In this document: positions 17,514 through 28,212 of the stretch, one piece after another
How the letters are laid out: each line of letters begins with the position of its first letter
Position numbering within the stretch: the stretch's first letter is position 1
Assembly: GCF_017875835.1 (NCBI RefSeq)
Contig: NZ_JAGING010000001.1
Location: forward strand, 248,001 to 312,000
DNA length: 64,000 nt
Direction: 5' to 3'
Source of the DNA: Psychrobacter sp. PL19
Lineage (GTDB): Bacteria; Pseudomonadota; Gammaproteobacteria; Pseudomonadales; Moraxellaceae
The notes under the pieces: generated by a model
What the model saw: the letters and a program-made list of their open reading frames with translations, nothing else
Told to the model about the DNA's origin: nothing
The model's database searches: none
Program-made: the position numbers and the translations under genes

Positions 17514-18035
17514 CTACAGTCGGGTATAAATATCCGTATCTTGGCCTTCGCCACCTTGCTGTTCATCAGCCCCTAAAGAAAACAAATCATAAGGCCGACC
17601 TTCGCTGCCTGGAGCGACATACTGCATGTCGCTTTCCCAACCATCAGTAGGATAACCGCCTTTGATATAACCCCCTTCAGGATAATTTTTGGCGTCGGCG
17701 GGCGGCGTAGTGAGCGCATCCAGACCTTGAGCGGTGGTGGGATAACGCGAATTATCTATTTTATACATGTCTAGTGCGTTAGATACTGTCGCTAGCGCGG
17801 TCTCTGTCGTTTTTACCCGCGCTTTATCGCTTTGTCCGACTACTTTTGGTACGACTAGGCCGGCAAGAATGGCTAAAATGACAATCACCACCATAATTTC
17901 AATCAGGGTAAAGCCAGACTGACCTTGATGCATCTGGGCTAGCGTTTGGCGACCGTCAATGGCAGAATCAGACGGCTTATTATTAATCATGCACGGCTCG
18001 ATAATATTTGGTTTGATTTGAGTATTCATGGTCAT
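17514..18035 (-). CDS. gspG: Type II secretion system major pseudopilin GspG
   Basis: Major pseudopilin of the type II secretion pseudopilus. Prepilin cleavage is at [35 protein letters not shown] with Glu at +5. The conserved GspG body follows: TALATVSNALDMYKIDNSRYPTTAQGLDAL, a GGY-KGGYPTDGW loop, PYDLFSLGADEQQGG and a C-terminal acidic calcium-binding type loop. The leader is unusually long, about 41 residues from the ATG at 18035. An in-frame ATG at 17933 would give a 7-residue leader but has no ribosome binding site, so the start is uncertain. The gene stands alone; gspF lies 600 bp upstream and gspE 8.6 kb away. Confidence 0.92.
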   Translation of the reverse strand: MTMNTQIKPNIIEPCMINNKPSDSAIDGRQTLAQMHQGQSGFTLIEIMVVIVILAILAGLVVPKVVGQSDKARVKTTETALATVSNALDMYKIDNSRYPTTAQGLDALTTPPADAKNYPEGGYIKGGYPTDGWESDMQYVAPGSEGRPYDLFSLGADEQQGGEGQDTDIYTRL

Positions 18036-18050
18036 AATAGATGTCGTCAC

Positions 18051-18663
18051 TGTTAGAAGCTGGTGCTTAAATAATGTAGAGATGAGTGCTTAAACGATTG
18101 TTACTATAGACCATGATTTTGTATTTATCTACTCTTCGCCGCGGATTATTGCCCAATCAATATCAAAATATAGCTCTTTGCATAGCCTTCGATAACACCT
18201 TTGCGCGATAGTTTAATCGTAGCGCGCTACCCTACTATTACTCTATCGTCACCCTATAGTTATTACTTAATTATGGGTACTTAAAAAGTGATAATATTAG
18301 AAGAATGCTGTTTCTAACAACATTCATTGCTAATACAAGTAATCTAATGCAGGTAACATAATACAATAAAACATAATAACGGCGACTATAGCTCAACTAC
18401 TAGATGACTGGTAGTAAAAGCAGGGGCTAGACAACAATCTACAACATTAAGAAAAAATTAAGAAACCTAAATATAGGTTAAGATTAATTATTAAATCAGA
18501 AATAAATAGCAAAATTAATTTGGCATAAGGGCAGCGAGGGGATAGGTTTTAGAAGCCACAACTGAACGCCTAGAATTGTACAATAATAGGGTAACAGCTA
18601 AGAAGCCTTTTCTAAAATAGCAACGTAATAAAAATTAGAATTTAGCGTAATACGGAGTTGAAC
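18051..18663. other. Gene-free interval between gspF and gspG
   Basis: About 610 bp, AT-rich, with stops in all frames. A near-perfect hairpin (GAATGCTGTT / AACAACATTC) lies near 18303-18326 without a U-run. I see no RNA gene or protein here; it presumably holds the gspG promoter. Confidence 0.5.
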
Positions 18664-19866
18664 TTAACCTGCTAGATCGTTCATATTCACAATCGGTAAC
18701 ATCACCGCCATCACGATAATCATGACTACCACACCCATCAAGACTAACATCAGTGGTTCAAGTAACGACAATAAGGTACTGATGAAGTTGGTTGCTTCGG
18801 CTTCTTGCATATTAGCTGCTCGGCTTAGCATACTCTCAAGCTCACCTGAATTCTCACCACTTTTGATCATTTGCACCATCATCGGTGGAAAATATCGCGA
18901 TTTATCAAGCTGGCTGGACAAGCTTGCGCCTTCCGTTACTCTATCAGCGGCATGGATAATAGTTTTTTGAATATGTAGATTGGTCGTGACCGCCGCCCCA
19001 ATGTGTAATGCTTCTATCAAGGGCACGCCTGAGCGCACCAATATTGCAAGAGTACTGGCAAAACGTGCCGCGTTGAGACCTTTAGAAAGTCGAGCCAATA
19101 TCGGTAATTTAAGTACAATGCTATCTATGGTCAGCTTACCCGCTTGGGTTTGAGCAAAGCGATAAGACAAAAAAGCCGCACCACCTAATACCAGTAGCAT
19201 TAGCCACCACCACTGAGTGATGACATTTGACAAGGTAAGCACTATTTGAGTAATCAAGGGTAGCGCTTGCTCGGACTGCTCAAATACCTTGACAATTTTG
19301 GGCACCACAAAGCTCATCAGCCCCATGATTACGCTTACTGCCATTACCATCAGCACTATGGGATAAACCATGGCGCCTTGGATTTTCTTTTGTAGGGCAA
19401 AGCGATTTTCAGTGTAATCTGCCAGCTGATTTAAAATGAGATCCAAATGACCAGACTTTTCGCCAGCAGCAATAGTGGCGATATATAGGGGCGGAAAGCT
19501 AGCGGCCTGCTCTAAGGCGCGTGCTAGGGTTAAGCCTTCTAGGACGTACGAGCGCACAGCAAGCATTAAAGACTTAATGTGGGTTTTTGGCGATTGCTTG
19601 GCGACTGCTGCCAAGGTTTCTTCAAGGGGAATACCAGCCGCCAGCAACACTGACAGCTGCCGGGTTAATAGGGCCATCTCATAAGCAGAGGGTTTTTTAT
19701 GGCGGCTCTTATTCCGGCTTTGCTTATCATGAACCGCGCTGACTTCGACTGGTGTCCAGTGTTTGTCCCGCAGCTGCTGACGCACTTGCCGCGCAGAATC
19801 CCCTTCGAGCAAGCCTTTTTGGGCCCCGCCTTGGTCATCAAGCGCTTTAAAATGATAAGCAGTCAT
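18664..19866 (-). CDS. gspF: Type II secretion system inner membrane platform protein GspF
   Basis: A 400-residue polytopic protein that anchors the secretion ATPase. It opens with YHFKALDDQGGAQKGLLEGDSARQVRQQLRDK, the GspF N-terminal signature. Two homologous cytoplasmic T2SSF domains follow (about 65-190 with LLTRQLSVLLAAGIPLEETL, and 265-390 with FASTLAILVRSGVPLIEAL). Transmembrane helices lie near 165-190, 213-240 and 370-395. Length matches the family. Its usual partners gspE and gspG are not adjacent. Confidence 0.93.
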   Translation of the reverse strand: MTAYHFKALDDQGGAQKGLLEGDSARQVRQQLRDKHWTPVEVSAVHDKQSRNKSRHKKPSAYEMALLTRQLSVLLAAGIPLEETLAAVAKQSPKTHIKSLMLAVRSYVLEGLTLARALEQAASFPPLYIATIAAGEKSGHLDLILNQLADYTENRFALQKKIQGAMVYPIVLMVMAVSVIMGLMSFVVPKIVKVFEQSEQALPLITQIVLTLSNVITQWWWLMLLVLGGAAFLSYRFAQTQAGKLTIDSIVLKLPILARLSKGLNAARFASTLAILVRSGVPLIEALHIGAAVTTNLHIQKTIIHAADRVTEGASLSSQLDKSRYFPPMMVQMIKSGENSGELESMLSRAANMQEAEATNFISTLLSLLEPLMLVLMGVVVMIIVMAVMLPIVNMNDLAG

Positions 19867-19976: not shown

Positions 19977-21059
19977 TTAGAACAGCGGTGTGGAATCGCT
20001 ACTATCCGGCATCAACCCTTGCAATAACAACACATCTAAATGCTGTTGTTGTAATTTTTTATCGAAGTCATTGACCTCAGCGATTAGCATTTTTTCAATA
20101 CGCTTATCAGTAGCATAGACACTGAGGCGGGCGCAGATAACGGCCAACTGATAGATACGTTTTTTACAGTAGCTGTCCAGCCCTTGTAGCAACCGCACCA
20201 TGTGCGGGGTCTCCAGACTGGCATAATCATAATCGCCAACGACTTGCTCACCCAGCGTAGTGACGCCATAGCTGATAGACAAATGAGCAAAGAAATAGCA
20301 GCTGAATAAATAGCCAACCACATGACCGATATAATAACCGCGATCATAAGTGAAACTACTGACCCCAAAATGACCCAACACATAGCTGTTAAGACTGGCT
20401 TGGTCTTGGATAGGCTTGGGATGCTTAAGCTTACCTACGGTAGGAAAGCGTAGCGGATTATGACCATCTTGAGTAGCGAGCTGCCAACCTGCTGGCTGCT
20501 GGGCGGGCATATGACTCACAATGTCAGCGATAATGTCATCAACCACATGCAACTGTTGCCATAAACGCTCTAGCGGTTCGGTATCAAGCAAACCACGCTT
20601 ATCGAGCTGCTGTGCAAGCATATAGTGCTGATATTCTACGAACTGAGTTTTGATGGTTTGCACCAAATAAGTCGGGCGTGTATTGGCAGACGCTAGATAT
20701 AATAGCTGCGTACGCTGATGCTGCGTACGGTAGAGCGCCACCCGTTGGCTTGCGACACTAGTCTCGCTAGTATCATTAGTCAGGCTTTGATTGGCAGATA
20801 TTTGAGCAGAAGCGCTGTTAGCAGATAATGTTTCAGTAGACGCGGCTTCAGTAGATTTCACCACAGCAGACTGCAACGTAAATAGCGCTAATAAAGTAGC
20901 TTTATCAGGTATTATAGGCGGGCTATTTTGTTGCTTATGCTGCGGCACATTCTTTGGATTGTACGGATTACTTTTAAGTTCGTCTTCATCTACAGCAGAC
21001 GCAACAAGGCCTTGTTGGCTACTTGGCTTAAAAATTGGATTAAAGGTCGGTTGGGTCAT
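19977..21059 (-). CDS. Protein of unknown function
   Basis: A 360-residue protein I do not recognise. Residues 1-115 are hydrophilic and low in complexity (Ser/Thr/Gln-rich, with SANSASAQISANQSL), probably disordered. Residues 115-360 look mainly helical and contain RTQLLYLASANTRPTYLVQTIKTQFVEYQHYMLAQQ, then YYIGHVVGYLFSCYFFAHLSISYGV, a short aromatic hydrophobic segment that may be a buried helix rather than a membrane span. There is no signal peptide. It lies 110 bp upstream of gspF on the same strand and could share its transcript, but nothing shows a secretion role. No ribosome binding site stands out. Confidence 0.6.
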   Translation of the reverse strand: MTQPTFNPIFKPSSQQGLVASAVDEDELKSNPYNPKNVPQHKQQNSPPIIPDKATLLALFTLQSAVVKSTEAASTETLSANSASAQISANQSLTNDTSETSVASQRVALYRTQHQRTQLLYLASANTRPTYLVQTIKTQFVEYQHYMLAQQLDKRGLLDTEPLERLWQQLHVVDDIIADIVSHMPAQQPAGWQLATQDGHNPLRFPTVGKLKHPKPIQDQASLNSYVLGHFGVSSFTYDRGYYIGHVVGYLFSCYFFAHLSISYGVTTLGEQVVGDYDYASLETPHMVRLLQGLDSYCKKRIYQLAVICARLSVYATDKRIEKMLIAEVNDFDKKLQQQHLDVLLLQGLMPDSSDSTPLF

Positions 21060-21542: not shown

Positions 21543-21619
21543 TGGGGCGACTGATGGGACTCGAACCCACGACAACCGAGATCACAACCCGGGGCTCTAC
21601 CAACTGAGCTACAACCGCC
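21543..21619 (-). tRNA. tRNA-His (GTG)
   Basis: A 77-nt cloverleaf with encoded CCA. It has an 8-bp acceptor including the extra G-1 paired with C73, which is diagnostic for histidine tRNA. The anticodon loop TTGTGAT gives GTG, and the T-arm is GTGGGTTCGAGTCCCA. It is the third and last gene of the Pro-Arg-His cluster. Confidence 0.97.
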
Positions 21620-21658
21620 ATAACTATTGCCAATAATAGGCAAGATTTTCAGGCTAAA

Positions 21659-21735
21659 TGGTGCGCCTGGCAGGATTCGAACCTGCGGCCACCTCCTTAG
21701 AAGGGAGATGCTCTATCCAGCTGAGCTACAGGCGC
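21659..21735 (-). tRNA. tRNA-Arg (TCT)
   Basis: A 77-nt cloverleaf with acceptor GCGCCTG/CAGGCGC, discriminator A and encoded CCA. The anticodon loop CTTCTAA reads TCT (AGA codons). It is the middle gene of the cluster, 39 bp from tRNA-His. Confidence 0.96.
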
Positions 21736-21812
21736 TCTTAAGGGCTTTTTATATATTCAGGCTACAGTCAAAATACATATACTAAAATATCACAGACTAA
21801 ACCATTATACAT

Positions 21813-21833
21813 AAAAAAAAGCCTGTAAGGCTC
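21813..21833 (-). terminator. Hairpin with U-run between tRNA-Pro and tRNA-Arg
   Basis: On the minus strand, AGCCT-tac-AGGCT is followed by eight T. It lies between two tRNA genes of one apparent transcript, so it may be a partial attenuator or a processing hairpin rather than a full stop. Confidence 0.6.
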
Positions 21834-21843
21834 TTAAAATAGA

Positions 21844-21920
<77 letters not shown>

Positions 21921-22165: not shown

Positions 22166-23878
22166 TTACTCGTTGTTTAAATCATTGTTTAAGTCACTGT
22201 TTAGGCCGCTGTCCAAATTTTGCTGCGGCCAACCATTAGGTGTTCCAGTCAGGACATTAAACGGCATTAGCCATAGCTTAGCGTAACTTGCATTATCGCT
22301 ACCCCCACTATCCAGGTAGCTCTGTTGACTTAACGCTAGCGGTTGCCGAGTGTTGTCTGTTACCGGATATACCAGCCAGACTTGCTGTGCCTGATAGGCC
22401 TGCGCATAACTGCTCAACTGATAAGCATCACTAGCGCTGATAGCACCTGAGTGAGACAAGTGTTTCCATTTAATATCAATAACATGGCTGTGAACGCGGC
22501 TACAAATATGCGAATTATCGGCTATAGCGTCATTAACATCGGCATGATAAATCAATAAGTCAGGACGGATAGATAAGCGTGCTTGACCTGTCATATCACT
22601 GAGCCACAGCCGTTGCGGTTGATATAATGCTTGATAAACAGGATCAAGCTGACTGAATATCCTCGCTATACGCTGACTGGCCCATTGCTCAAAGGCCTGA
22701 TTCATATCAATTAATAAACATAATCGCGGCGGTGTTATGGCTTGTCTTAGTAAGGTTTGGGTATTGATCCCACTACCAGAGTCTGAACTTGACTGCTGTA
22801 ATAACCAATAGGCCAAGTCTAATAATTGCTGCACTGATTGTAATTGCTGTTGCTGCAACGGCTGAGCGTTGAGTTGACGCTTTGCTTGCTGATATATCTG
22901 CTCTAATGACCGCCGCTCATGATGACTAAGCGCTGCAATCTGTCGCCACGGGGACAATGCTGCAGAAAATAATGTTGCTTGTGCATAACTGTGATCAGGG
23001 CTGGCATGGTGTTTATAATAATTTTTATTGTCGGCGCTCTGATTCTCGGTGCTTTGATTATCGATGTTTTGATTATCGATGTTTTGATTATTGATGTTTT
23101 GATTATCAATAAAACTTGAGTGCTTAAGCTTGGATTGACCATAGCTTAATCCCCCCTGCACCATTGCTTCGATTAGCAGCAATGCACTTTTGATCAATCG
23201 ATTACTCAACATATCTGGGCTCAGGACGCTAGTCTCACACATAAACTTGTGCGGTTGAGTACTGTTGCGCCGTAGTTGCTCCTTAATGAGCAGTTTGCCT
23301 TGAAGTGAGGACTGATTATGAATCTGCGCCTGATAATGCTTAATAGGCTGATAACGAGACAGACGCTGTAAAAACTGCGCGACCAACCACTGCGATAGCG
23401 GCGGTGCTGGTATCGGTAAAGGCGCTACATTATTACTCAATTGACCTAAGTTTTTGGTATTAGGCCGCTTGCGGTTATTGCCATCAGTCAAATCTGACAG
23501 CATACGCTGTACCCATTGACGAGTCTGTAAAATATCACTGTGGTTTCTAGGCTGCCGTGTGCCTTGTTCTCCGACAGGCTTGGGCAATATTTCAAGAGTC
23601 AGGCCACTAGGCAGTAAAATAAGTCCAATATAGTGACCCACTTTAAGCTGCCATTGTCCGCGTTGGCGCTTAATACTAAATACTGCGAACTCTTGGGTGA
23701 GCAGCCATGTAAAGTCAGAATCTTGTGCAAAATCATGACTGGTTAAACGTTGATGCTCGAATACAGTGATGATCAATGCATCAGAGGTATAAGGGGTATC
23801 AGGGGTATCAGGGGTATAAGGAGTATCGATACTTAACATAGGCTTATTTGCAGAATCATTTTGATTGCTATTCATCAT
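22166..23878 (-). CDS. mcrC: McrC-like nuclease subunit of a McrBC-type restriction system
   Basis: A 570-residue partner of the adjacent McrB-like GTPase/ATPase. The N-terminal half (residues 35-130 with VFEHQRL, GLILLPSGLTLEILPKP) matches the McrC substrate-channel region. The C-terminal PD-(D/E)xK nuclease shows RPDLLIY (near 445) and VIDIKWK (near 470), supplying the D...DxK residues. McrC stimulates McrB and cuts modified DNA. Two low-complexity inserts are unusual: a TPDTPYTSD-type repeat at residues 18-33, and an Asn/Gln-rich repeat of NIDNQ units at about 258-285. The start follows the mcrB stop by 9 bp, consistent with translational coupling; no clear ribosome binding site is seen. 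Confidence 0.88.
   Translation of the reverse strand: MMNSNQNDSANKPMLSIDTPYTPDTPDTPYTSDALIITVFEHQRLTSHDFAQDSDFTWLLTQEFAVFSIKRQRGQWQLKVGHYIGLILLPSGLTLEILPKPVGEQGTRQPRNHSDILQTRQWVQRMLSDLTDGNNRKRPNTKNLGQLSNNVAPLPIPAPPLSQWLVAQFLQRLSRYQPIKHYQAQIHNQSSLQGKLLIKEQLRRNSTQPHKFMCETSVLSPDMLSNRLIKSALLLIEAMVQGGLSYGQSKLKHSSFIDNQNINNQNIDNQNIDNQSTENQSADNKNYYKHHASPDHSYAQATLFSAALSPWRQIAALSHHERRSLEQIYQQAKRQLNAQPLQQQQLQSVQQLLDLAYWLLQQSSSDSGSGINTQTLLRQAITPPRLCLLIDMNQAFEQWASQRIARIFSQLDPVYQALYQPQRLWLSDMTGQARLSIRPDLLIYHADVNDAIADNSHICSRVHSHVIDIKWKHLSHSGAISASDAYQLSSYAQAYQAQQVWLVYPVTDNTRQPLALSQQSYLDSGGSDNASYAKLWLMPFNVLTGTPNGWPQQNLDSGLNSDLNNDLNNE
23029..23113. repeat. In-frame tandem repeat inside mcrC
   Basis: Units of about 15 bp (TGTTTTGATTATCGA type on the plus strand) repeat several times, encoding NINNQ, NIDNQ, NIDNQ, STENQ and SADNK on the minus strand. 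Units are multiples of three, so copy-number change would keep the frame. Confidence 0.85.
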
Positions 23879-23887
23879 TTATAGTGA

Positions 23888-25312
23888 TTAATACAGGCGT
23901 TGATAGATAGAGGACAGCACGAACTCACCAGTGTTTGCGACAAGGTCTGGATTAACTCTATACCCACCAGTGCTCATCGACTGGCCTAAAAAGGCATTTT
24001 GACCTGCGAACATTGGGGCTTGAGCTTTGATATTAGGCTGGTTATTGAGAGGGTCGTCTGTCGCCACCTGGTTATCCTGGATAAACTGTGCGCTATAGGG
24101 CTGCTGCTCGTCTTTAAACAGGTACTGTAAAATGGCGATTTGCCCGCCAGCGGCTTGCGCTAACTGCGGAATAACCTGTTCAACCAATACCGACTGCAGC
24201 TGACTTAAATTCTGTACTGAGAACAAAAACGCATGGCCTAATTGTGCTTCCTGACCTAGGGTTTGCATAATGCGCTGGTTTAAGCCAGATAACAGCTTGG
24301 CCAAATCAATCGCTGCTGACTTCTGCTCTGCCGAATTTTCATAAACATTGATACTGGGTAATAGCTCTGGCTGCGGCGGACAGTCAATAAAACGAAAACG
24401 CCGACGCAAGGCCATATCGAGTGGCGCTAACGAATGATCTTGAGTATTCATAGTGGCGTAAATATCGACATTCGCAGGGACGCTAAACGGACGCCCAGAA
24501 TAAGCCAGATTAACTTGCATCGCATTTGGTAATCCGCTGCGTTTGTCTGCTTCGATCAAACTGAGTAGCTCGCCAAATACCCGAGAAACGTTGGCACGAT
24601 TGATTTCATCGATCAATATTGCATAGCGCTGTTCAGGATCTCGAGCAGCGCGCTGACACAATGCCAAAAACGCCCCATCTTGGATATCGTAGCTGATTTG
24701 TGCTTGTCTATTGATGCCAATCACAGGCCGAATGCCTTCTACAAACTCTTCATAACCATAGGCTTGGTGGAAGCTAACCATACTGAAGCGCTGCTTACTA
24801 AGACCCTGATTGTGCTTGGTTATATTGTCACGCTGTGCTTGCTTAAATTCTGTTAGCTGCTGCGATAACGTCGTTAATAGCGCCATACTCTCTGGTAATA
24901 GATACCATGCCCCGCTCTCATCTTTATCGAAATAAGCTTGGCTGGCTCGGTTTTTATAAGTCACCGTTTGCGACGTTACAGAACTGTGTATTTGCAGCAC
25001 TGACCATGCGGTGTTGCTTAAGTTTTTGTCGCGAGAATTTTGTGCCGCTTTGGCAATAAAAAATTCGTGAGCAACAATCTCAGGAACCTTGACCAGGTCC
25101 TGATGCTCAGTTTTAAATTCTAAAAATATCAAGCACAATACGTCACGCCAGCTTAAATCTTGTAGTAACTGTGCGAGCATCTGGTCATCGTCCGCTGTAG
25201 GAAAATAATCGGTGTATTGCTTGGCAATTTGTAACAAGCGGTAGGTTTTACCAGTACCAGCGACCCCAGTATAAATAATATTTACAGCGTCATTGATGGA
25301 CAGGTCATTCAT
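23888..25312 (-). CDS. mcrB: McrB-like AAA+ GTPase/ATPase of a McrBC-type restriction system
   Basis: A 474-residue motor subunit. Walker A GVAGTGKT is at 16-23. The McrB-specific FHQAYGYEEFVEGIRPV is at 180-196, Walker B ILIDEINRAN at 231-240, sensor ATMNT at 285-289, and an arginine-rich segment DMALRRRFRF at 298-307. Unlike E. coli McrB there is no N-terminal methylcytosine-binding domain: the AAA+ module starts at residue 10. Instead about 100 residues (50-150) are inserted between Walker A and the FHQAYGYEEF motif, with VPEIVAHEFF, KNLSNTAWSVLQIHS and AYFDKDESGAWYLL, resembling a winged-helix-type module. How it selects DNA is therefore open. It is first in a two-gene operon with mcrC. 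Confidence 0.9.
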   Translation of the reverse strand: MNDLSINDAVNIIYTGVAGTGKTYRLLQIAKQYTDYFPTADDDQMLAQLLQDLSWRDVLCLIFLEFKTEHQDLVKVPEIVAHEFFIAKAAQNSRDKNLSNTAWSVLQIHSSVTSQTVTYKNRASQAYFDKDESGAWYLLPESMALLTTLSQQLTEFKQAQRDNITKHNQGLSKQRFSMVSFHQAYGYEEFVEGIRPVIGINRQAQISYDIQDGAFLALCQRAARDPEQRYAILIDEINRANVSRVFGELLSLIEADKRSGLPNAMQVNLAYSGRPFSVPANVDIYATMNTQDHSLAPLDMALRRRFRFIDCPPQPELLPSINVYENSAEQKSAAIDLAKLLSGLNQRIMQTLGQEAQLGHAFLFSVQNLSQLQSVLVEQVIPQLAQAAGGQIAILQYLFKDEQQPYSAQFIQDNQVATDDPLNNQPNIKAQAPMFAGQNAFLGQSMSTGGYRVNPDLVANTGEFVLSSIYQRLY

Positions 25313-25841
25313 AACTTAACTCAGCACTAAAAAAGGGTTAAAAACAAAGCAGTAAAAATATGCATACTGTTTTTTGATAGGATTACCGATGTGATGTCAT
25401 AAGGGTAAGCGAGCAGGCTTGGGGGCTTGCGAACAAAGAATTTGAGCCTTGTCCTTCCAATCCATATACCAGCTAACGATCATTTTTATGTACGGTGGCA
25501 GATGACACTCAAGAGCCATCCAGATACATTTCTACACGTCCACTACTATCAGTTACCTTACTATTATTTTATGACTGTAGCAGTTTATGGTAATAATAGC
25601 AGGCATGCTTAAGTTAATGTACCATAGTTAACAACAGCCTTAAGCGGTCTCAAAAGACAGTTACTTAGAGCATAGATGCTATCTTGACCCTGTATCGAGT
25701 TCGATATAACGGCCAAAAGTTAATATCAGTTGATTATTTTTGATCAATCGTATTATCGTTGAACTCTGCTCAACCCCTGTTTTATCTAAATGCCTGTTTT
25801 ATTTAAGCGATTGCCCCCTAATTCAAGTTGAGGAATTTTGT
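25313..25841. other. Intergenic region between mcrB and the DUF4442 gene
   Basis: About 530 bp containing the divergent promoters of mcrBC (minus) and the DUF4442 gene (plus). Short ORFs here lack ribosome binding sites and recognisable sequence; I see no gene. Confidence 0.5.
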
Positions 25842-26552
25842 ATGTCAGGATTACTAAAAAAGTTACCAGCCAAGCTGTCTACTAAATTGCCAGCCAAGAT
25901 ATCTGACGCCCTCAGTCCAACTGCAGAACCAAACAGTACGCTCAAACCCATAAACAATCAATTTACCAAGTTGTTATCGGTCACTAAGTATTTACCTACG
26001 GGTGCGCGCTCTACTATTTTATCCAAAGCCTTTGGCAAGGTCGTACCGTATGTGGGCACGACTGGTGTTTATTACGAAACAGTAGACCCTAATAAAGTGG
26101 TGGTCAGTCTAAATAATAGCAAAGCAGTCCAAAACCATATTGGCTCTATCCATGCGGTTGCCATTACCCTACTGGCCGAGACTGCCACTGGTTTTATATT
26201 GGGACTGAACCTACCTTCCGATCGAGTACTATTGGTTAAGTCCTACTCAGTCAATTTTTATCGCCCACTTAAAAAAGGTCAGGTTGCCGCTGTTGCTACT
26301 TTGTCTGACGAGCAACGCTTAGATATCTTGAATACGCCTAAAGGCGAAATGGTCATTCCCTGTGTCATAAATGACCGCGAGTCTGATAGTGATCGTGACC
26401 CCATCACCGTTGAAATGACCTGGGCCTGGGTACCTAAAGCTGAGCTAGAAGCGCGTCGCCAAGGCAAAAAAGACAGTGCCTCATCGACTACTCAGAACAT
26501 TGATGACTATAAAGGTGAGAATGAAAATGTTAGTGCGAATACAACAAATTAA
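25842..26552 (+). CDS. DUF4442 hotdog-fold (thioesterase-like) protein
   Basis: A 236-residue protein whose residues 45-205 resemble the DUF4442/PaaI-like hotdog family: LLSVTKYLPTGARSTILSKAFGKVVPYVGTTGVYYE, then NHIGSIHAVAITLLAETATGFILGLNLP, where the NHIGSIHA segment marks the central helix of the fold. Hydrolysis or binding of acyl-CoA is inferred from fold only. The first 30 residues are Lys/Pro/Ala-rich (KLPAKLSTKLPAK repeats) and the C-terminal tail is Asn/Asp-rich. The ATG at 25842 is chosen for GAGGA 7 nt upstream; the frame is open further upstream to 25740. It is monocistronic. Confidence 0.72.
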   Translation: MSGLLKKLPAKLSTKLPAKISDALSPTAEPNSTLKPINNQFTKLLSVTKYLPTGARSTILSKAFGKVVPYVGTTGVYYETVDPNKVVVSLNNSKAVQNHIGSIHAVAITLLAETATGFILGLNLPSDRVLLVKSYSVNFYRPLKKGQVAAVATLSDEQRLDILNTPKGEMVIPCVINDRESDSDRDPITVEMTWAWVPKAELEARRQGKKDSASSTTQNIDDYKGENENVSANTTN

Positions 26553-26673: not shown

Positions 26674-28212
26674 TCAAAGAATAGCGTCATCGGTTAAGGC
26701 GCTTTCTTTGGTCACCCGCAATACTTCCTCTAAGGTAGTACGTCCCGCTATCACTTTATGCAAACCATCAGCACGAATGGATGGGGTCTGTTGCCGTGCA
26801 TAGGCTTCTAATTCATATTCTGCGGTATTGCTATGAATCATCCGTCGCAATGCATCATCAACAGGGACCACTTCATATATTGCGGTTCTGCCTTTAAAGC
26901 CGGACTGATTACACTTATCACAGCCAACGGCTCTAGGCAGATTAATTACGGTTTCTACCGAATCTACACCCTCTGTTCCAACACCAATTTCAGCAAATAA
27001 TTTTGCTTGCTCAGGATCTGCCTGTTGCCACGTATGGCAATGTAGACACAGAGTACGTACCAGGCGCTGCGCGACCACGCCAATCAGTGACGACGATAGT
27101 AAAAACGGCTCAATACCCATATCTTGCAGACGAGTCACCGCGCCAATAGCCGTGTTAGTATGCAGAGTCGATAATACCAAATGGCCGGTTAATGACGCTT
27201 GTACCGCGATCTCAGCAGTTTCAATATCACGAATCTCACCCACCATCACCACATCTGGATCTTGACGTAGCATTGCGCGCAGACTTTTAGCAAAGGTCAT
27301 ATCGACCTTGTTATTAACTTGGGTCTGCCCAATACCATCTAATTGAAACTCAATGGGATCTTCGGCGGTTAAAATATTACGCGTTTGGTCATTAAGATCA
27401 GTCAAAGCAGCATATAAGGTAGTGGTCTTACCCGAACCTGTAGGGCCAGTCACTAGGATGATGCCATGAGGTCGATGAATTAAGCGTTTAAGCTCACTAT
27501 AATCGTTATCTAGCAATCCTAGATACGTCATATTAAGATGACCGGCTTGTTTGTCCAACAAACGCATCACTACCCGTTCGCCGAAGCTGGAGGGTAAAGT
27601 AGATACCCGCACATCGACTTCGCGCCCGGCCAGTCTTAAGCTAATACGTCCGTCTTGCGGCACGCGCTTTTCGGCGATATCAAGTTTAGCCATGACTTTG
27701 ATACGTGACACCAATAATGGGGCCAGTTGGCGTTTGGGTGTGATGATTTCTTTGAGTTCGCCATCGACCCGAAAACGCACTACCAGTCGCTTCTCAAAAG
27801 TTTCAATATGAATGTCTGAGGCGTTAAGGCGAATAGCTTCTGATAGCAATGCATTAATCAGGCGAATAATGGGGGCATCATCCTGCTGATCCATCAAGTC
27901 TGCAGTTTCAGGGACGCTATCCGCTAAGCTATCAAGGTCAGGGTGATCTTCAAGCCCAGCGGCAATGTGCTGTGATTCGCCAGTATTACCAGCGTAGGCC
28001 GCGTTCATGCGCTTTTCGAAAGCATCTGAACCGACACTTTCGTAAGTAGGTATACCGCGGACGCCTTGCTGCTGCAAAAACCGTACGGCCTCATTGATGG
28101 CAGATAACGGCGTTGCTGTAGTCAATATCAGTGTTGGCGGCAGCGCAGGATCAATAGCAAGAATAGCCAACAGCTGATGGCGTTTTGCGAAACTGTACGG
28201 CAGTTGCATCAT
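26674..28212 (-). CDS. gspE: Type II secretion system ATPase GspE
   Basis: A cytoplasmic hexameric ATPase of 512 residues that drives pseudopilus assembly. The order is an N-terminal N1E-like region, RFRVDGELKEI at about 147-156, Walker A GPTGSGKT at 256-263, the Asp box and Walker B (QDPDVVMVGEIRDIETAEIA), and a His box (GHLVLSTLHTN). A zinc module has CLHC and CDKC pairs near residues 393-440. The four cysteines and LSSSLIGVVAQRLVRTLC separate it from PilT and fit GspE; PilB is the main alternative. It pairs functionally with gspF (18664-19866) and gspG (17514-18035), which lie beyond the mcrBC and tRNA genes. Confidence 0.9.
   Translation of the reverse strand: MMQLPYSFAKRHQLLAILAIDPALPPTLILTTATPLSAINEAVRFLQQQGVRGIPTYESVGSDAFEKRMNAAYAGNTGESQHIAAGLEDHPDLDSLADSVPETADLMDQQDDAPIIRLINALLSEAIRLNASDIHIETFEKRLVVRFRVDGELKEIITPKRQLAPLLVSRIKVMAKLDIAEKRVPQDGRISLRLAGREVDVRVSTLPSSFGERVVMRLLDKQAGHLNMTYLGLLDNDYSELKRLIHRPHGIILVTGPTGSGKTTTLYAALTDLNDQTRNILTAEDPIEFQLDGIGQTQVNNKVDMTFAKSLRAMLRQDPDVVMVGEIRDIETAEIAVQASLTGHLVLSTLHTNTAIGAVTRLQDMGIEPFLLSSSLIGVVAQRLVRTLCLHCHTWQQADPEQAKLFAEIGVGTEGVDSVETVINLPRAVGCDKCNQSGFKGRTAIYEVVPVDDALRRMIHSNTAEYELEAYARQQTPSIRADGLHKVIAGRTTLEEVLRVTKESALTDDAIL

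What the first reader, a model, noticed from the sequence alone, without database searches (positions are those of the whole stretch)
22166..25312. McrBC-type system whose McrB lacks the N-terminal recognition domain
McrB begins directly with the AAA+ core (Walker A at 16-23). It carries about 100 residues between Walker A and the FHQAYGYEEFVEG motif, resembling a winged-helix module (KNLSNTAWSVLQIHS). In E. coli McrB, specificity comes from an N-terminal methylcytosine-binding domain. Here target choice must come from the insertion, from McrC, or from a partner not in view. McrC retains its PD-(D/E)xK residues. This is the best candidate in the window for a less-described defence variant.
Basis: partly seen in the sequence, partly recalled or inferred. 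Interest (0 to 1): 0.55.

Follow-up and report, generated by a model that had tools for sequence, protein, structure and literature searches.

The report
Genus-wide McrBC with winged-helix insert
This bacterium and all the relatives examined in its genus keep, at one fixed chromosomal spot, a stripped-down version of a DNA-cutting defence machine, which hints that it does a steady job for the cell and is not just passing through like most such systems.

Summary
The gene pair is real. McrB (474 aa) starts 15 residues before Walker A with no room upstream for an N-terminal domain. McrC keeps its nuclease residues.

The same insert sits at the same place in distant McrBs that also carry N-terminal domains, including an Enterococcus McrB with the MrcB_N reader. 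It is a module of an McrB lineage, not a substitute invented for the lost domain; insertions in McrB are in print.

The surprise is distribution. McrC is in 104 of 105 genomes of the genus. In 103 of 103 neighbourhoods mcrB lies beside the same divergent DUF4442 gene, with mcrC and tRNA-Pro/Arg/His downstream except at contig ends. McrB distances follow flanking genes, selection is purifying, catalytic residues are invariant in 102 McrCs. A second genus keeps the pair at another fixed locus (4 of 4). C5-methyltransferases, by contrast, occur in 43 of 105.

Most likely it is a resident McrBC motor nuclease engaging DNA through its winged-helix ring. A domesticated housekeeping role is not excluded.

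The parts
23888..25312 (-). mcrB-like gene, 474 aa, AAA+ NTPase without N-terminal domain
   Evidence: Walker A 16-23, Walker B IDEINR, NxxD signature MNTQD, FHQ motif; best solved relatives T. gammatolerans and E. coli McrB; AlphaFold2 mean pLDDT 68.6
24794..25207 (-). insert of McrB (residues 36-173) holding a predicted winged helix
   Evidence: AlphaFold2 alone pLDDT 89.3; PDB matches MarR, forkhead, PerR and similar; homologous inserts in distant McrBs; median dN/dS 0.112
22166..23878 (-). mcrC-like gene, 570 aa, PD-(D/E)xK nuclease partner
   Evidence: PF10117 E 2.7e-35; D440, D468, K470, E397 invariant in 102 of 102
21543..21920 (-). tRNA-Pro(TGG), tRNA-Arg(TCT), tRNA-His(GTG), same strand, directly downstream of mcrC: conserved neighbour, not part of the machine
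   Evidence: ARAGORN; the same three in 99 of 103 neighbourhoods, two show tRNA-Pro only and two none
25740..26552 (+). DUF4442/4HBT-type gene, divergent conserved neighbour of mcrB
   Evidence: PF14539 E 5.2e-25; next to mcrB in 103 of 103 neighbourhoods

Best explanation
It is an McrBC-type motor nuclease in which McrB has no N-terminal reader domain and carries a winged helix inserted between Walker A and the FHQ segment. Shown by sequence and model: intact NTPase motifs, intact nuclease residues, winged-helix fold (predicted), two-gene arrangement, fixed place and vertical inheritance in the genus. Inferred: McrB forms the usual hexamer, the six winged helices engage DNA around the ring, McrC docks in the pore, stimulates NTP hydrolysis and cuts. 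Most likely it acts as a resident restriction nuclease against incoming DNA with a feature that the host lacks, but not against 5-methylcytosine in general. Which feature is unknown.
For: Motifs and catalytic residues conserved in 102 McrB and 102 McrC of the genus. Fold of the AAA+ part matches solved McrB, Z up to 18.4 over 282 residues. Insert modelled as a winged helix. McrC 104 of 105 genomes; McrB 97 of 97. DUF4442 neighbour 103 of 103, McrC downstream 102 of 103, the miss at a contig end. Mantel r of McrB with McrC 0.95, with g19977 0.94, with DUF4442 0.85. dN/dS medians 0.134 McrB, 0.18 McrC. Winged helices are shown modification readers in other type IV enzymes, and NTD-wH-NTPase/McrC pairs are named but untested (PMC11037411, passages).
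Against: No restriction activity or DNA binding was tested. The insert occurs with separate N-terminal readers elsewhere, so it may be structural and not a reader. Genus-wide fixation is unlike patchy restriction systems. The DNA-engaging step rests on fold alone; winged helices also bind proteins. 43 of 105 genomes carry a C5-methyltransferase family gene and 20 of 105 a D12 (Dam-type) gene, which argues against general 5mC or Gm6ATC targets.
Confidence: 0.55

Rival explanations
1. Domesticated housekeeping McrBC: the pair was taken over for a chromosomal task (for example processing of replication, recombination or transformation intermediates), which is why it is kept at one locus in the whole genus.
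For: 104 of 105 genomes and 103 of 103 same neighbourhood; co-divergence with neighbours; purifying selection close to that of flanking genes; a second genus keeps it in recO-pdxJ-miaE-mcrB-mcrC-hemE order in 4 of 4; co-option of an McrB protein is known for PcdA (PMC10602043, passages).
Against: Unlike PcdA the NTPase and nuclease sites are intact and McrC is kept. No link to a pathway was found. One low-quality genome (G274) has a broken mcrB, in one of four copies of the second genus mcrB has an in-frame TGA, and 1 of 6 genomes of a third genus gave no match.
Confidence: 0.3
2. Ordinary E. coli-like 5-methylcytosine restriction by a different reader (McrC extra segments or a distant partner gene).
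For: Clear McrB/McrC homology.
Against: No third gene in the unit; 43 of 105 genus genomes including this one carry PF00145 C5-methyltransferases, so a general 5mC target would attack self DNA. The contexts those enzymes methylate are unknown, so this is not decisive.
Confidence: 0.1
3. The insert is only a structural or protein-binding part of this McrB lineage and DNA is gripped by the AAA+ pore and McrC; the pair is a sequence-nonspecific, perhaps end- or structure-dependent, nuclease.
For: Insert present together with N-terminal readers in other McrBs.
Against: Strong conservation of its helix 3 and wing residues such as T101, W103, R122, F128, D129, K130, W136, which would also fit a structural role.
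Confidence: 0.25

Closest known systems
Escherichia coli McrBC
   Same: AAA+ core with Walker A/B and NxxD, FHQ segment, PD...DxK McrC partner in an operon; model aligns to 6hz4_D with Z 16.4 over 248 residues
   Different: E. coli McrB has an N-terminal methylcytosine domain and no insert between Walker A and FHQ (PMC11090510 passages)
Thermococcus gammatolerans McrBC
   Same: closest solved fold, Z 18.4 over 282 residues
   Different: has an N-terminal domain; about 24 residues between Walker A and FHQ
NTD-wH-NTPase/McrC pairs (Helbrecht et al. 2024, PMC11037411)
   Same: McrB-like NTPase with a winged helix and an McrC-like partner, as described there
   Different: those are described with an N-terminal domain and the order NTD-wH-NTPase, and were not characterised; here there is no N-terminal domain and the winged helix is inside the AAA+ domain (passages read)
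Enterococcus faecium McrB of plasmid p_AK_C_05 (L269)
   Same: homologous insert at the same position, McrC next door
   Different: 1146 aa with MrcB_N and a long N-terminal part
YdiS/YdjA of Bacillus subtilis (PDB 9a5m; part of BsuMI, recalled)
   Same: 343-residue McrB-like chain with only about 24 residues before the aligned core, Z 14.8
   Different: short chain with no room for such an insert; works in a different restriction unit (recalled)
PcdA of Staphylococcus aureus
   Same: McrB family, lineage-restricted chromosomal gene
   Different: two EVE domains, degraded Walker motifs, no McrC (PMC10602043 passages)

Membership tests
McrB family of AAA+ NTPases | Walker A, Walker B and NxxD signature | tested here: met
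   GVAGTGKT, IDEINR, MNTQD; key positions invariant or nearly so in 102 genus sequences
McrB family of AAA+ NTPases | AAA+ fold of solved McrB | tested here: met
   6ut4_F Z 18.4, rmsd 4.8, 282 aligned
McrB family of AAA+ NTPases | GTP preference | not testable with these tools
   the guanine-reading residues known in E. coli (Asp176, Phe178) and T. gammatolerans (Asn193) lie 22-25 residues before Walker A; this protein has only 15
E. coli-type McrBC restriction system | N-terminal DNA/modification-binding domain on McrB | tested here: not met
   stop codon two codons before the start; at most 87 residues from the nearest upstream stop to Walker A among 102 genus genes
E. coli-type McrBC restriction system | McrC partner with PD-(D/E)xK residues | tested here: met
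   PF10117; D440, D468, K470 invariant in 102 of 102
E. coli-type McrBC restriction system | restriction of DNA with modified cytosine | not testable with these tools
   43 of 105 hosts carry C5-methyltransferase genes, which speaks against a general 5mC target
CoCoNuT / NxD branch (PMC11090510) | NxD signature in McrB | tested here: not met
   N289-T-Q-D292 is NxxD
wH-NTPase/McrC group (PMC11037411) | winged helix in the McrB-like protein plus McrC-like partner | tested here: met
   AlphaFold2 and PDB comparison; McrC downstream
wH-NTPase/McrC group (PMC11037411) | N-terminal domain preceding the winged helix | tested here: not met
   no N-terminal domain; sequence kinship of the winged helices was not tested
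PcdA-type co-opted McrB | degraded NTPase motifs and no McrC | tested here: not met
   motifs intact, McrC kept
A known winged-helix sequence family (Pfam) | significant Pfam or PDB sequence match of the insert | tested here: inconclusive
   none of 25 inserts hit a winged-helix family in Pfam; no PDB sequence match better than E 0.75

The most novel reading that the evidence does not exclude
A complete McrBC motor nuclease has become a core chromosomal function of a whole bacterial genus (and separately settled in a second one), having shed its modification reader while keeping motor, winged-helix ring and nuclease: a domesticated restriction machine with a housekeeping role in handling the cell's own or incoming DNA, and possibly with altered nucleotide choice because the known guanine-reading elements are gone.
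Probability: 0.3. Interest if true: 0.75.

Novelty: new variant of a known kind. Interest (0 to 1): 0.5.

Why it matters
Restriction systems usually come and go. A two-gene McrBC kept at one locus by a whole genus makes it possible to ask what such a machine does when it cannot be a transient weapon. The minimal architecture also makes two open points testable: whether the inserted winged helix alone can aim an McrBC, and how an McrB that lacks the upstream guanine-reading residues chooses its nucleotide.

Tried and rejected
An unnoticed N-terminal domain upstream or out of frame: rejected, the frame is closed and no minus-strand ORF of 60 aa or more lies in 25313-25740.

A recent island at the tRNA cluster: rejected, same order in all 103 neighbourhoods and distances track flanking genes. 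Caveat: the genus has two deep lineages that drive part of the correlation; I did not repeat the test within one lineage.

CoCoNuT/NxD branch and PcdA-like co-option: tested, not met.

Sequence kinship of the insert to a named winged-helix family: nothing in Pfam for 25 members or PDB by sequence. HARE-HTH and the DpnI winged helix were considered from memory; no call listed them, which does not exclude them.

The phylum-wide count of the insert (4 of 299 genomes, two of them in this genus) is a lower bound because the profile leans on this genus. Naming the organism by plasmid matches failed; my impression that the genus is Psychrobacter is recall. A paper search for YdiS/YdjA/BsuMI gave nothing.

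Full report
WHAT IS THERE. Two genes on the minus strand, mcrB (23888-25312, 474 aa) and mcrC (22166-23878, 570 aa), 9 bp apart. McrB has Walker A at 16-23, FHQ at 181, Walker B at 234, the NxxD signature at 289-292. Its nearest solved relatives are T. gammatolerans and E. coli McrB. McrC matches PF10117 (2.7e-35) with D440, D468 and K470. There is no N-terminal domain: one codon lies between the ATG and an upstream stop.

THE INSERT. In the whole-protein AlphaFold2 model (9 sequences, mean pLDDT 68.6) residues 41-160 score 74-93 by blocks of ten. Modelled alone the insert reaches 89.3, with helices 5-15, 20-33, 41-45, 48-56, 63-73, a strand pair 93-95/101-103 and a long last helix. Foldseek gives no significant E (best 0.19), but the ranked matches are mostly winged-helix proteins (MarR, forkhead; also PerR, MntR and histone H1x) with Z 7-9, for example forkhead 5ocn_G 79 residues at 3.1 A. 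The tool's own note says Z under 8 can be a common arrangement, so the fold is likely, not proven, and says nothing of function. No Pfam or PDB sequence family claims it.

THE INSERT IS NOT UNIQUE. The same segment at the same place occurs in McrBs with large N-terminal parts: L099 Geobacter OR-1 (Walker A at 269), L109 Myxococcales (295), L097 (448, weak EVE 0.0034), L098 (345), L076 and L077 (380), viral-contig L113, L114, L116 (381-396), and on plasmids L267 (245), L268 (258) and L269 (737), whose N-terminus is MrcB_N, E 6e-47. Of 94 loci scanned, 8 had a gap of 120 or more, 51 ORFs were shorter, 2 had no Walker A and 33 loci gave no ORF that fitted. Two of the 8 (L120, L157) are again N-less, 422 aa, with a shorter insert. 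A census in print says McrB GTPase domains frequently contain insertions, likely specificity domains (PMC11090510, section 6 read). So the insert is a lineage module, and what is special here is its survival without any other reader.

A GENUS-CORE PAIR. McrB: 36 of 36 genus genomes and 97 of 97 (rows counted by hand; worst E 1.6e-91; no genus genome was seen among the 20 listed non-matches; 98 further non-matches were not listed, but the list runs genus first). McrC: 104 of 105, 97 of 97 among good genomes; the one miss, G276, is 77% complete. I fetched 103 neighbourhoods (the window plus 102; G276 and G277 of the 105 were not fetched). The divergent DUF4442 gene is beside mcrB in 103 of 103; McrC is downstream in 102, the miss L064 being at a contig end; tRNA-Pro, -Arg, -His follow in 99, two more show tRNA-Pro only and two none; gene g19977 is found in 95, most of the other eight being short contigs or short stretches, while L258 is a full-length stretch without it. 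McrB is a full-length ORF in 102 of 103; L265 (G274, 85% complete) has it broken at 225 aa. Protein distances of McrB correlate with McrC (0.95, 27 loci), g19977 (0.94, 26) and DUF4442 (0.85, 22), none of 2000 permutations reaching these values. Median dN/dS: McrB 0.134, insert 0.112, McrC 0.18, DUF4442 0.097, g19977 0.107, gspE 0.033. McrC D440, D468, K470 and E397 are invariant in 102 of 102.

CONTROLS. In the same 105 genomes C5-methyltransferases (PF00145) occur in 43, type I HsdR (PF04313) in 85, at many different places, and D12 methyltransferases (PF02086) in 20. By the matches column about 22 of 97 genus genomes carry a further McrB-like gene, leaving out four whose two rows are one split gene; this is a hand count. 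So other restriction genes are patchy while this pair is fixed. Hosts with C5 or D12 enzymes keep the pair, which argues against a general 5mC or Gm6ATC target.

OUTSIDE THE GENUS. Genus g28: 5 of 6 genomes, three of the five loci in one place. Genus g30: 4 of 4, all in the order recO-pdxJ-miaE-mcrB-mcrC-hemE (names by Pfam; order; one unnamed gene lies between mcrC and hemE); one of the four has a TGA inside mcrB. Both lack an N-terminal domain.

HOW IT MAY WORK. By homology the McrB hexamer hydrolyses NTP, McrC docks, stimulates and cuts. With no N-terminal domain the six winged helices are the obvious candidates to engage DNA; winged helices read N6-methyladenine in other type IV enzymes and NTD-wH-NTPase/McrC pairs are named there but uncharacterised (PMC11037411, passages). 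Nucleotide choice is an open point: the residues that read guanine in E. coli (Asp176, Phe178) and T. gammatolerans (Asn193) (PMC7680126, passages) sit 22-25 residues before Walker A (G201 and G215), and this protein has only 15 residues there.

VERDICT. The 'insert as replacement reader' is weakened. The genus-wide fixation is the real surprise. I found no paper on it: searches 'Psychrobacter + McrBC', 'McrBC + core genome + conserved' and 'McrBC/Moraxella/Psychrobacter/restriction', judged from listings only; the genus name itself is recalled.

Noticed in passing
23035-23110 and 23775-23840: In-frame tandem repeats inside mcrC of this genome (15-bp units giving IDNQN-type repeats, and 9-bp TPD/TPY units near the start); McrC length varies 444-570 aa in the genus.
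   Followed up: no
L265 (G274:C1): The only genus neighbourhood with a broken mcrB ORF (225 aa); genome 85% complete, so decay or assembly error cannot be told apart.
   Followed up: partly
L072-L075: In genus g30 the pair sits directly after miaE, a tRNA-modifying enzyme gene, and in genus g1 directly before three tRNA genes; probably coincidence.
   Followed up: partly
G000:C1:2756759-2758066 (L094): A second, non-orthologous McrB-like gene in the same genome (open frame 781 aa), patchy in the genus.
   Followed up: partly
17514-19866 and 26674-28212: Type II secretion genes F, G and E lie on both sides of the mcrBC/tRNA block (separate from each other); g19977 (19977-21059) between them has no Pfam match but is conserved in the genus.
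   Followed up: partly
L120, L157: Two IMG/VR contigs carry 422-aa N-less McrBs with a shorter related insert, a separate clade in the tree.
   Followed up: partly
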